DNA of 64,000 bases from an uncultured Gammaproteobacteria bacterium (GTDB taxonomy: Bacteria; Pseudomonadota; Gammaproteobacteria; HK1), in assembly GCA_947258715.1 (NCBI GenBank), contig CAMYJH010000012.1, positions 124,001-188,000 on the forward strand, read 5' to 3'. Below are positions 46,055-50,032 of the stretch, piece after piece. Numbering within the stretch: the stretch's first letter is position 1; every line of letters starts with the position of its first letter. A program made the translations under genes and the position numbers. The notes below the pieces were generated by a model that saw only the letters and a list, made by a program, of their open reading frames with translations, was not told the origin of the DNA and did no database searches.

Positions 46055-47059
46055 ATGCGCCAAAGCAGGCTCATTTTCATCGTGTTGATCGCTGTCGTTG
46101 CGGCGGCGGTCATCCTTTTCCGCCAGCTGATTGTCATGGATATGCCGGATCAATCGTATCGGGGCCCGCTGGAGCCGCTGTCACCAGCTCAAGCTGCTCT
46201 GGCGAACCGCTTAGAACGGCACGTGACGGCTCTTGCGGCCGAAATTGGTGAACGCAACCTTTTTCGGCAGGGAACGCTGGGGCGCGCTTTTCGGCACATA
46301 GAGCAAAGTCTTATCGCCGCTGGCCTACCGACAGTGCCTCAGGACTTCGAGGTCGGCGTACATACGGTGAGTAATATCGAGGCGATGATCCCTGGGAAGA
46401 GTCCGGAAGCAGCGGTCGTCGTGGTCGGTGCCCATTACGACTCGGTTCAGGGTTCGCCGGGGGCCAACGACAACGCCTCGGGCGTTGCCGCGCTGCTGGA
46501 GATCGGGCGCGCGCTCCAGGGACACAGCTTCAAGCGCGGCATACGCCTTGTGGCTTTCGTCAACGAAGAGGCACCGTTCTCTTACACCGAGTCCATGGGA
46601 AGCGTGCGCTACGCCCAGCGCCTTATGCAACAGCGTCAGACTGTGGCGGCGATGGTGTCGCTGGAGACTGTCGGCTTTTACACCGACGATCCCGGCAGCC
46701 AGCGCTACCCGTTTCCTCTGAGCTACTTCTATCCCGACACTGGTAACTTCATCGCTTTCGTCGGCAATCCCGCATCCAAGGCCCAGGTGCGCAGAATGGT
46801 GCGCGCATTTCGCGAGAATGCTCGCTTTCCCTCGGAGGGCCTCGCCGCGCCGGAGCGGATCGCCGGCGTTAGCTGGTCGGATCACTGGGCATTCTGGCGT
46901 CATGGCCTGCCGGCGGTTATGGTGACGGACACGGCGCTCTACCGCTATCACGAATACCACACGTCCAAAGATATGCCCCGCATCATTGCATACGATCGCT
47001 TGGCGCGAGTCGTCGAGGGGCTTATCGCCGTGATCGTCGATCTCGCTGACGGCGATTGA
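46055..47059 (+). CDS. M28-family metallopeptidase, membrane-anchored
   Basis: A 334-residue zinc peptidase. The N-terminal segment (LIFIVLIAVVAAAVILFRQL) is a signal anchor, so the catalytic domain is periplasmic. Zinc ligands typical of M28 are visible: VVVVGAHYDSVQGSPGANDN (His and Asp), RLVAFVNEEAPFSYTESMG (the Glu pair) and a later SDHWAFW with FWRHGLPAVMVTDTALYRYH. The family contains aminopeptidases and, more rarely, glutaminyl cyclases. It is monocistronic. A hairpin AGCGCC-AAG-GGCGCT lies upstream near 45980. Confidence 0.85.
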   Translation: MRQSRLIFIVLIAVVAAAVILFRQLIVMDMPDQSYRGPLEPLSPAQAALANRLERHVTALAAEIGERNLFRQGTLGRAFRHIEQSLIAAGLPTVPQDFEVGVHTVSNIEAMIPGKSPEAAVVVVGAHYDSVQGSPGANDNASGVAALLEIGRALQGHSFKRGIRLVAFVNEEAPFSYTESMGSVRYAQRLMQQRQTVAAMVSLETVGFYTDDPGSQRYPFPLSYFYPDTGNFIAFVGNPASKAQVRRMVRAFRENARFPSEGLAAPERIAGVSWSDHWAFWRHGLPAVMVTDTALYRYHEYHTSKDMPRIIAYDRLARVVEGLIAVIVDLADGD

Positions 47060-47205
47060 AATTAGCGTCGGTCACGTGCGGAGATACAACCGCGGTCAGT
47101 GATGACTGCTAAGCAAGAACAGATTTATGAAAATCGGCAACCGCAGGCTTTGATTATTTGGCTGTCTACTGAACGATTGTGTAATCAACTTAAGGAGGAT
47201 ATTTG

Positions 47206-47505
47206 ATGGCGTCTTCGAGCGATACTTTGCACGTGCCCCGAGAGCGACTGAGCGAAGGAACACTAGCAATGCACTACGCTATCGTTTCACTGATGGAAGA
47301 GCTTGAGGCGGTGGACTGGTATCAACAGCGCGCAGACGACTGCGAGGACGAAGAGCTGAAGCAGATCCTGCTGCACAATATGCGCGAGGAGATGGAGCAT
47401 GCTTCCATGGTGCTGGAGTGGATTCGGCGAAACAGCAAGGACTTCGCCGCGCAAATGGACGAAATCCTATATAAAAAGGGTGATATCGTGCACCACGAGC
47501 ATTGA
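47206..47505 (+). CDS. Encapsulated-ferritin-like (EncFtn) protein without targeting tail
   Basis: A 99-residue ferritin-like protein. With ATG 47206 (AAGGAGG, about 7 bases upstream), the residues known for R. rubrum EncFtn fall at the same numbers: Glu31, Glu32, Glu34, Trp38, Tyr39 in SLMEELEAVDWYQQR and Glu62, His65 in REEMEHASM. EncFtn oxidises Fe(II) as an annular decamer inside an encapsulin nanocompartment. Here the chain stops at HHEH, just where the linker and encapsulin-targeting peptide begin in the known proteins, and no encapsulin gene is in this window. It may work free in the cytoplasm, or deliver iron elsewhere. Neighbours are M28 and the VWA pair. Confidence 0.9.
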   Translation: MASSSDTLHVPRERLSEGTLAMHYAIVSLMEELEAVDWYQQRADDCEDEELKQILLHNMREEMEHASMVLEWIRRNSKDFAAQMDEILYKKGDIVHHEH

Positions 47506-47527: not shown

Positions 47528-47564
47528 AAAAAAATGCGGCCGGGGTTAATGACCCCGGCCGCAT
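47528..47564 (-). terminator. Strong Rho-independent terminator
   Basis: A 13-bp stem (atgcggccggggt, 47534-47546, with accccggccgcat, 47552-47564) closes a 5-base loop. A run of A at 47528-47533 reads as a U-tract on the minus strand, so it ends the VWA/membrane operon. Its stem may also stop plus-strand transcripts of the EncFtn-like gene (stop at 47505). Confidence 0.88.
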
Positions 47565-47597: not shown

Positions 47598-48272
47598 TCA
47601 GTTGACCAGAATTCGCTCCAGGCGGTCCATGTCGTTGATCACAGTCCACCGGCCTCCGCCTTCCTCGACCCGCGTCTGCCAGTCTTCTAGGCGAGTCAGG
47701 TATTTACGCGGATCGACGTTGTCGGCCCGCAGCTTGGTCACGTTGAGCGCCGTGACGCTGAAGCCGGCGAGCTGCAGCGGGATGTCGCGCACGTAGCCCT
47801 TGGGCAGATCCTCTTCCAGATCCGAATAAATCAAAACGTCCTTGATGCCGGTACTCTTCTCGTTCAGGTACTCGATCGCCTGAAGGACGCCGCCGGTGAT
47901 ATCAGTATGCTGGGCCGGTCTCACCGCTCGGACGAACTGGTTAATCATTTCCCTGAATCGACGCTTCTGTTTATTCGCGATGCTGGGCCGGTCGTCGAAG
48001 GTCATCTTGGCGATAATGTCCTTTTCGCTGAAGCTGCCAGTGTCGATGCGGCCAACGGCAAAGGAATCGCCTGGTTCAAGCCTCACGAGAATGACGTTTA
48101 TCAGCTGTTGAGCCTTTTCGAGCTCTTTGGCGTAGGTGCCAGAGGTATCGATAAGGAGATAAACGCCGCGATTGTTCGGCATTGCCTCGCCGCTACAGCC
48201 GCCGATGAGGACGGCCACGAATAGCGAAACTGCAAATATGGTTACTCGTTTCATTACGAATACCCTCTTCAT
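47598..48272 (-). CDS. VWA-domain lipoprotein
   Basis: A 224-residue secreted lipoprotein with a signal peptide and lipobox (FAVSLFVAVLIGGCSGEA, Cys near residue 23) and a von Willebrand A domain (about 30-200). The MIDAS metal site is nearly canonical: GVYLLIDTSGTYAKEL (D-x-S-x-T instead of D-x-S-x-S), AQHTDITGGVLQAIEYL (Thr) and VLIYSDLEEDLPKG (Asp). VWA proteins bind partner proteins through a metal ion. Its start overlaps the stop of the membrane-protein gene as ATGA, so translation is coupled. The target is probably periplasmic; the partner is likely the product of the upstream gene. Confidence 0.8.
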   Translation of the reverse strand: MKRVFVMKRVTIFAVSLFVAVLIGGCSGEAMPNNRGVYLLIDTSGTYAKELEKAQQLINVILVRLEPGDSFAVGRIDTGSFSEKDIIAKMTFDDRPSIANKQKRRFREMINQFVRAVRPAQHTDITGGVLQAIEYLNEKSTGIKDVLIYSDLEEDLPKGYVRDIPLQLAGFSVTALNVTKLRADNVDPRKYLTRLEDWQTRVEEGGGRWTVINDMDRLERILVN

Positions 48273-49735
48273 CGTGCGATGATTTGTGTTGGTTCCTCGT
48301 CGCCAATTACGTCGATCGAACCTGGACTGACCTTTTTCTTCCGCTCCCCATTCGACTTGACCATCCGTTCCATCGAGAGCGGAATGAAGATGAGCAGGTC
48401 GTAGACGTCGCGAAGAACGCTGCCGGCATGCCGTGATACGTTGCCCATGAGCCGCAATATATAAGCAAGCGACCTTAGCAACACCGCCGCCGTGAGCCCC
48501 AGGACAGTCCGCATCGCGTGGACGAACGACTCCAAAGGAATCGCCACGAAAACCAGCGCGAACGGGAGTATGAATCCCAAGCACATCTGGGCCGCGGTGG
48601 TAATCCACGAGAAGTCTCCGACCACGCTGCCGATAGCGTCACCCCGCAGAATTGCGCTGGTGGCGAGCTCGTCCTCGAGAAGCATTTCTCGCATGAAAGC
48701 GAGCCCCGCCTCGACGCTGGCAAGAATGAATAGGATGGAGAACGTGATCCAAACCATACGCATGCGCACAACGTCCTTCAGCGCGCCGATTACGGGAAAT
48801 AATCTGGTGATGCGCAGAGACTCCATGAGAAACAAGCCCATGGAGATCTCCACCAGGATAACGACCAGTGCCGCCACGTCGGCCATCTGAAAACCGGCCA
48901 CCAAGGTTTGCCCGCCAACCATCTCGGCCATGGGCCGGGCGATAAGGCTGAAGTTGATCGCCGCACCTCCGACCGCTACAGCCAGCACGAACGCCGAGAT
49001 GAAGAACTGGTTCAGCGCAGAGGAAGACAGGACGCGAAGGGCGCGATCGCTCTTCGCCAGAATTTCTTTGTAATCCTCGATATGCTTGGCAATGATCTCG
49101 GAGCGCTCGAGCAGACTGTTGATGTGCTTGTCGACTTCATCGAGGCGCCGCTGGATGTTTCGCCAGTAGGGGACGAGGTTTTTCAGCAAGCCATGTCGCT
49201 CAGCGCTGGCCTTGCGGTACTCGAGGAGAGCCTTATCGTGCGCCTTAACGAGGGACTTGTGAATGTCCTCGAGGATCTCGACGACCATCGGATCGCTCTT
49301 TGAAGGCAGCTTGGCGACCGACTGGACCGCCTGGGTCCATGCCAGCGGTGAAGGTGGAATCTCTCCGGTTTGCCTGTAGTCTTCTTCGATCTTTTCGAGG
49401 GTCTCACTGATCTTGCGGTGCAGTGACGGATATTCAGCCAGGTCGCGGCGCACCGTCGCGTCCATGCGCTCGATCTCGCGCTCGATGATGCGTTCCGCCG
49501 CGTCCCGTCCGTGGCTGAGCAAAACCGTGCGGTTTCTTTCGCCAAGCCGGCGCTCCGCGTACAACACGGAAACGGCGGAAATTCTAAAGGCGTTGTGGAG
49601 CACACGCGTGGACGACCTGATTGCCTGATGCATCGGCGTGCGGGCAAGGTACAGGCCCACCGTCAGCGCCAGGAACCAGATGAGTCCCGAAACCACTGGA
49701 TCCGGTGTAATCATGAAAATGTCATACAGAGACAT
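48269..49735 (-). CDS. Coiled-coil multi-pass membrane protein, unknown family
   Basis: A 488-residue protein: one N-terminal helix (PDPVVSGLIWFLALTVGLYL), a long helical cytoplasmic-type segment (about 40-230; ERIIEREIERMDATVRRDLA, KHINSLLERSEIIAKHIEDY), then four to five membrane helices (FFISAFVLAVAVGGAAINFS, AALVVILVEISMGLFLMES, VWITFSILFILASVEAGLAF, MCLGFILPFALVFVAIPLES) and a short polar tail. AGGGGAT precedes ATG 49735. I recognise no named family. It forms a coupled pair with the VWA lipoprotein, so the two probably act together at the envelope. Confidence 0.75.
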   Translation of the reverse strand: MSLYDIFMITPDPVVSGLIWFLALTVGLYLARTPMHQAIRSSTRVLHNAFRISAVSVLYAERRLGERNRTVLLSHGRDAAERIIEREIERMDATVRRDLAEYPSLHRKISETLEKIEEDYRQTGEIPPSPLAWTQAVQSVAKLPSKSDPMVVEILEDIHKSLVKAHDKALLEYRKASAERHGLLKNLVPYWRNIQRRLDEVDKHINSLLERSEIIAKHIEDYKEILAKSDRALRVLSSSALNQFFISAFVLAVAVGGAAINFSLIARPMAEMVGGQTLVAGFQMADVAALVVILVEISMGLFLMESLRITRLFPVIGALKDVVRMRMVWITFSILFILASVEAGLAFMREMLLEDELATSAILRGDAIGSVVGDFSWITTAAQMCLGFILPFALVFVAIPLESFVHAMRTVLGLTAAVLLRSLAYILRLMGNVSRHAGSVLRDVYDLLIFIPLSMERMVKSNGERKKKVSPGSIDVIGDEEPTQIIAR

Positions 49736-50032
49736 CGTTGTATCCCCTTTTTGTGAGGTTGCTTCCGGCAACCCAGCGGCTGGCTTTAAAGATCAGTTGG
49801 CCGGCGCGAGCCCGTAATCCCCCGCTTACTGGGCAGGAACGCGCAGGTGTCTGAATTAAATGTAGAAGGTGATCTGGGAAGTATCTGCGACTCAGCTAAC
49901 AAAATGGGAACAAAACTCAGCGCAGGGCTGGCAGCATGTCGACGCGCCTGGAGTATATGTAATTTTCCGGAAATGTTCGGTAATAAAAATCTACAGATTA
50001 AAACCTTTGTTTCTAGGCTGGCGCCTCGGCGC

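What the first reader, a model, noticed from the sequence alone, without database searches (positions are those of the whole stretch)
47206..47505. Stand-alone encapsulated-ferritin-like protein without a targeting tail or encapsulin
Seen: 99 residues with Glu31/Glu32/Glu34/Trp38/Tyr39 and Glu62/His65 at exactly the positions known for R. rubrum EncFtn, and a chain that ends at HHEH. Known: EncFtn is normally followed by an encapsulin-targeting peptide and an encapsulin gene, and it relies on the shell for iron storage. Inference: this version works without a compartment, as a free ferroxidase or an iron-delivery protein, or with a partner elsewhere in the genome. The strong ribosome-binding site and the following terminator argue against a random fragment.
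Basis: partly seen in the sequence, partly recalled or inferred. Interest (0 to 1): 0.8.

Follow-up and report, generated by a model that had tools for sequence, protein, structure and literature searches.

The report
Shell-free relative of encapsulated ferritin
This small gene encodes an iron-oxidising ring protein of the encapsulated-ferritin family that lacks the tag for entering a protein shell, in a genome with no detectable shell gene; such untagged forms turn out to be the commoner kind in this bacterial class and often sit beside peroxide-defence genes.

Summary
Window 47206-47505 (+) encodes a 99-residue EncFtn-family protein (PF22277, E 1.7e-36) with every R. rubrum ferroxidase, entry-site and exit-site residue at identical numbers, no targeting peptide, and no encapsulin (family 1 or 2A) detected in its 94.7%-complete gammaproteobacterial genome. 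The 'following terminator' faces the other strand and serves the convergent gene.

It is not a rarity. In 370 same-class genomes, 85 carry only untagged EncFtn and no encapsulin; all 21 encapsulin genomes carry a tagged (20) or shell-fused (1) EncFtn; six carry both kinds. Untagged members are a named but little-studied class (s-FLP; crystal structure 3k6c). A 2024 review left open whether they are encapsulated and proposed a putative targeting peptide; here that ending occurs mostly in genomes without a shell gene.

New here, as far as I could search: 24 of 91 untagged genes (0 of 22 tagged) lie beside DUF3501, in five inspected cases within rubrerythrin operons, and 135 of 155 untagged proteins end in a His-containing motif (0 of 30 tagged).

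Best reading: a free decameric ferroxidase coupled to peroxide defence. The function is inferred. The window's own copy is solitary, of a mainly alphaproteobacterial type, probably acquired horizontally.

The parts
47206..47505 (+). Untagged EncFtn (s-FLP type) gene, 99 aa
   Evidence: Translation; PF22277 1.7e-36; PDB relatives
47192..47198 (+). Ribosome-binding site AAGGAGG
   Evidence: Sequence
47296..47322 (+). Helix 2 metal and conserved residues E31, E32, E34, W38, Y39
   Evidence: Alignment A3: E31, E32, W38, Y39 invariant in 58 sequences; numbering check
47374..47400 (+). Helix 3 residues H57, E61, E62, E64, H65 (ferroxidase and exit sites)
   Evidence: Invariant in 58 sequences; roles from PMC5012862
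47473..47502 (+). C-terminal end KKGDIVHHEH: no targeting peptide, His-containing ending as in 135 of 155 untagged relatives
47534..47564 (-). Intrinsic terminator hairpin with T-tract on the minus strand, belonging to the convergent gene
47598..48254 (-). Convergent neighbour, about 218 aa, no Pfam match
46055..47059 (+). Upstream neighbour, M28 family peptidase, 147 bp before EncFtn

Best explanation
It is an untagged (s-FLP type) encapsulated-ferritin homologue that acts free in the cytosol. Subunits pair through the di-iron site and are expected to assemble, on binding Fe2+, into a ring of ten, as crystallised relatives do. Fe2+ enters past E31/E34, is oxidised at the E32/E62/H65 site with O2 or, more likely in vivo, H2O2, and leaves past H57/E61/E64. 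With no shell the ring cannot mineralise iron, so it would work catalytically or with small capacity: it lowers free Fe2+ and peroxide and leaves Fe3+ to another store (this genome also appears to have a bacterioferritin and two Dps). Shown here: sequence, metal ligands, predicted fold, absence of a detectable encapsulin, independence of untagged forms from shells across genomes, and the link of many untagged forms to peroxide-defence genes. Inferred: oligomer, activity, peroxide as oxidant, hand-over to other ferritins, and a role for the C-terminal His.
For: All metal-site residues conserved; fold; no encapsulin in own genome; tag and shell go together in 61 and 370 genomes, with untagged forms mostly in shell-less genomes; untagged but not tagged genes beside DUF3501, with rubrerythrin and Fe-S oxidoreductase where inspected; AhpC/TSA, glutathione reductase and FeoB among neighbours; isolated R. 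rubrum EncFtn is a ferroxidase that does not mineralise iron (PMC5012862); other ferritins present.
Against: No biochemistry on any untagged member was found. The window's own gene is not in a peroxide operon (DUF3501 is on contig 32). Most untagged genes (67 of 91) were not seen beside DUF3501. The neighbour enrichment has no scanned background set. Only 3 supported independent tag changes exist, too few for a significance test. The genome is 94.7% complete, so a missed shell gene is possible, and family 2B encapsulins were not searched.
Confidence: 0.62

Rival explanations
1. [quoted passage not shown]
For: Gene order rbr-RFO-encFtn-DUF3501 in four loci; RFO proposed as electron carrier for rubrerythrin (PMC5114695); peroxiredoxin neighbours.
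Against: Entry and exit sites of the iron path are kept intact; most untagged genes are not seen near RFO/DUF3501; no electron-transfer data.
Confidence: 0.2
2. It is an iron chaperone that supplies iron to rubrerythrin or other di-iron proteins.
For: Shared operon with rubrerythrin in several genomes; FeoB among neighbours; low iron capacity of isolated EncFtn (PMC5012862).
Against: Most untagged genes (67 of 91) were not seen beside DUF3501; no interaction data.
Confidence: 0.08
3. It is still cargo: the short His-containing end is an unrecognised targeting peptide for a shell that the searches missed.
For: PMC11202242 lists LFTD(E/N)KPIAHE as a putative targeting peptide; six genomes have both an untagged EncFtn and an encapsulin; the draft genome is incomplete.
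Against: 128 of 134 untagged rows come from genomes without encapsulin; in genomes with both forms, a separate tagged EncFtn is the one beside the shell gene; four of those untagged copies lie beside DUF3501 instead.
Confidence: 0.05

Closest known systems
s-FLP class of EncFtn, N. europaea NE0167 (PDB 3k6c)
   Same: About 95-99 residues, no targeting peptide, same half-bundle fold, His-containing end; the class forms decamers in crystals (PMC11202242)
   Different: The window protein is on the other side of a supported split (98), ends GDIVHHEH rather than KPIAHE, about 50% identical to 3k6c
Encapsulated ferritin of R. rubrum and H. ochraceum (5da5, 5n5f)
   Same: All ferroxidase, entry and exit residues and the fold
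   Different: Those carry a 20-40 residue tail with a targeting peptide and sit with an encapsulin gene; this has neither
Aerobic-type rubrerythrin operon (rbr-RFO-DUF3501; PMC5114695)
   Same: Untagged EncFtn is a fourth gene of this cluster in several relatives
   Different: The window's EncFtn is elsewhere in the genome; the cluster in this genome lacks it
Classical ferritin, bacterioferritin and Dps
   Same: Ferritin-superfamily di-iron proteins, present elsewhere in the same genome
   Different: They are single-chain four-helix bundles forming closed cages; this is a half-bundle whose relatives form an open ring; no PF00210 match

Membership tests
EncFtn-like family (PF22277) | Profile match over the curated cut-off | tested here: met
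   124.3 bits against cut-off 27
EncFtn-like family (PF22277) | E32, E62, H65, Y39 di-iron centre and E31/E34 entry site | tested here: met
   numbering from PMC5012862
EncFtn-like family (PF22277) | Two-long-helix monomer with a short third helix | tested here: met
   AlphaFold2 model and PDB comparison
EncFtn-like family (PF22277) | Decameric ring | not testable with these tools
   Only monomer prediction available; relatives are decamers (PMC5012862, PMC11202242)
EncFtn-like family (PF22277) | Ferroxidase activity | not testable with these tools
   Needs purified protein
Encapsulin cargo EncFtn (TIGR04535, FLP-TP) | Curated TIGR04535 cut-off (125 bits) | tested here: not met
   96.1 bits
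Encapsulin cargo EncFtn (TIGR04535, FLP-TP) | C-terminal targeting peptide | tested here: not met
   Chain ends GDIVHHEH; no targeting-peptide motif
Encapsulin cargo EncFtn (TIGR04535, FLP-TP) | Encapsulin shell gene in the genome | tested here: not met
   Family 1 none over cut-off, family 2A none; genome 94.7% complete; family 2B not searched
s-FLP class (PMC11202242) | Short FLP without long disordered C-terminus or targeting peptide, EXXH motif | tested here: met
   99 aa; E62-H65 EXXH; no tail
s-FLP class (PMC11202242) | LFTD(E/N)KPIAHE ending | tested here: not met
   Window ends LYKKGDIVHHEH; alpha-type ending
Aerobic-type rubrerythrin operon | Gene adjacent to rbr, RFO or DUF3501 | tested here: not met
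   Window copy is on contig 12, the operon on contig 32; met for 24 relatives
Classical ferritin/Dps/Bfr (PF00210) | PF00210 match | tested here: not met
   Not among Pfam matches up to E = 1

The most novel reading that the evidence does not exclude
Untagged EncFtn is a separate, shell-independent branch of ferritin biology: an open-ring ferroxidase that works with the rubrerythrin-RFO-DUF3501 system against peroxide, with its own His-containing C-terminal motif where the cargo forms have a targeting peptide, and it is the commoner form of the family in Gammaproteobacteria.
Probability: 0.5. Interest if true: 0.72.

Novelty: new member of a known kind. Interest (0 to 1): 0.52.

Why it matters
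EncFtn is known as a protein that must be inside an encapsulin to store iron (PMC5012862). The comparison here indicates that most members of the family in this class have no detectable shell to enter, and it speaks to a question left open in a 2024 review (PMC11202242). It also gives the untagged form a testable job: peroxide-linked iron oxidation next to rubrerythrin. This affects annotation, since the name 'encapsulated' misleads for most of these genes, and it gives a natural system for asking what an open-ring ferritin does without a compartment.

Tried and rejected
Better ferritin-family match: none (Coat_F and DUF2383 only at E about 0.04-0.05). Encapsulin elsewhere in the genome: none over cut-off. 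Conserved operon partner around the window-type (mostly alphaproteobacterial) untagged genes: none general; only lineage-limited MsrP-type neighbours; the most frequent apparent 'neighbours' are shadow ORFs of EncFtn itself. Common upstream regulatory motif: none seen by eye in the printed upstream regions. Known RNA element or sigma-70-like promoter near the gene: none. Contaminant contig: the tetranucleotide profile of the region lies within the range of other contigs of the genome, so no sign of it, although this test separates genomes only weakly. 16S taxonomy: no rRNA hit scored in the draft, replaced by RpoB; a first RpoB tree with wrong-frame rows was discarded. Phage or plasmid carriage: no phage match; only distant plasmid homologues. 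Syntenic site in relatives: the M28 neighbour has no close ortholog in the family members searched, so no empty site could be shown.

Full report
THE OBSERVATION. The ORF 47206-47505 (+) encodes 99 residues from an ATG preceded by AAGGAGG at 47192-47198. It matches Pfam EncFtn-like at 1.7e-36 (124 bits, cut-off 27). NCBI's encapsulin-cargo model TIGR04535 recognises it at 96 bits, below its cut-off of 125. E31, E32, E34, W38, Y39, H57, E61, E62, E64 and H65 stand at R. rubrum numbering, i.e. the di-iron centre, the entry site and the outer exit site defined in PMC5012862.

OWN GENOME. The window is contig 12, bases 124001-188000, of a 4.89 Mb, 94.7% complete draft. It holds one EncFtn, no encapsulin over cut-off (best 12.6 bits, cut-off 24.3) and no family 2A shell. 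It does hold what look by sequence like a bacterioferritin, two Dps beside LysR-type regulators (one also near a KatG-like catalase), and a rubrerythrin-RFO pair with DUF3501 on contig 32. RpoB places it with Gammaproteobacteria, yet its EncFtn is closest to proteins of Kiloniellales/Rhodospirillales (77-79% identity) and less like those of the near relatives sampled (at best 57-59%). Horizontal transfer is the simplest reading (inference); Marinobacter species share this type. Composition of the region gives no sign of a contaminant contig.

TAG AND SHELL ACROSS GENOMES. In 61 genomes chosen because they have EncFtn, encapsulin occurs in 10, and each of those has an EncFtn with a targeting-peptide tail; none of the other 51 has encapsulin. 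In 370 genomes of the window's class, 113 EncFtn loci were classified: 91 untagged and 22 tagged, the last counting one (G243) whose reading frame runs on into a truncated encapsulin. Encapsulin occurs in 21 genomes, always with a tagged or fused EncFtn; 85 genomes have only the untagged form; 6 have both. Over 165 rows: tag with shell 31, tag without shell 0, untagged with shell 6, untagged without shell 128. Counting independent changes on the tree leaves only 3 supported (7 in all), nearly always in agreement but too few for a significance claim.

THE UNTAGGED ENDS. 135 of 155 untagged proteins have a His in the last 7 residues, 0 of 30 tagged, while His makes up 1.7% of the preceding tail positions. 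The ends are KPIAHE-like in most gammaproteobacterial members and GDIAHH-like in the window's group. The review PMC11202242 lists LFTD(E/N)KPIAHE as a putative targeting peptide; here such ends occur mostly in genomes without a shell gene, so targeting is unlikely to be their main use. A metal-binding or docking role is my inference.

NEIGHBOURS. Around 39 untagged class loci the nearest genes include many of peroxide and thiol defence: DUF3501 (5), AhpC/TSA (4), Fe-S oxidoreductase of GlpC type (4), rubrerythrin (3), glutathione reductase, EgtB, and also FeoB; no background set was scanned. In four loci the order is rbr-RFO-encFtn-DUF3501 on one strand, and in a fifth rbr-RFO-DUF3501-peroxiredoxin-encFtn. 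Across the 370 genomes 24 of 91 untagged loci lie within 1 kb of DUF3501, all on the same strand, in 18 families, against 0 of 22 tagged loci; random placement of two genes in a 3 Mb genome would give about 0.1 (the last figure is my arithmetic, and the DUF3501 list was cut off by the tool, so 24 is a lower bound). Four of the six genomes with both forms (G030, G364, G285, G243) have the untagged copy beside DUF3501. The rubrerythrin-RFO-DUF3501 cluster is published (PMC5114695); I found no mention of EncFtn in it. Around the window-type genes there is no general partner; several Kiloniellaceae have a MsrP-type (Oxidored_molyb) gene downstream. The window's own neighbours are a LonB-like protease, a universal stress protein, an M28 peptidase and the convergent gene.

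HOW IT MOST LIKELY WORKS. Isolated R. rubrum EncFtn oxidises Fe2+ but holds only about 10-48 iron ions per ring and precipitates iron without its shell (PMC5012862). An untagged ring therefore should not be a store. The best-supported role is a free ferroxidase, probably using H2O2, that removes Fe2+ and peroxide together and leaves Fe3+ to Bfr, Dps or other partners. A rubrerythrin-like peroxidase fed by RFO is the main rival; iron delivery to rubrerythrin and hidden encapsulation are less likely.

KNOWN OR NEW. The class is known: 's-FLP', PDB 3k6c, whose encapsulation was called unclear in 2024 (PMC11202242). The window protein is one more member, in a second group separated from NE0167 by a supported split (98).

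Noticed in passing
   Followed up: yes
L258, L292, L293, L294, L264 (about 0.7-6.2 kb in each): Untagged EncFtn as a fourth gene of the rubrerythrin-RFO-DUF3501 operon, with a peroxiredoxin in L264.
   Followed up: yes
L254 (G243 contig 227): EncFtn whose reading frame continues into the C-terminal half of an encapsulin: a fusion or deletion product; the same genome also has an untagged EncFtn beside DUF3501.
   Followed up: partly
L178 (G406) and L210 (G133): Untagged EncFtn with a 20-residue Lys/Ala/Pro-rich tail (for example EKPAAKPKAAPKAKKPTPKSE) that resembles basic, DNA-binding-like tails; genomes without encapsulin.
   Followed up: no
L115 and L116 (G000 contigs 6 and 87): Two Dps-like genes in the window's genome, each beside a divergent LysR (OxyR-like) regulator, one also next to a KatG-like catalase-peroxidase.
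   Followed up: no
window 46055-47059: The M28 peptidase upstream has a 56%-identical paralogue on contig 7 of the same genome but no close ortholog in the family members searched.
   Followed up: partly
window 47598-48254 and 48269-49771 (-): Two adjacent minus-strand genes without Pfam match; the first looks like a lipoprotein with a von Willebrand-type DLSGT-like start (LLIDTSGT).
   Followed up: no
Plasmids CP069301.1, NZ_CP133114.1, NZ_CP044544.1, NZ_CP025114.1: Distant EncFtn homologues (34-40% identity) annotated as hypothetical proteins on Bradyrhizobium and Rhodopseudomonas plasmids.
   Followed up: no
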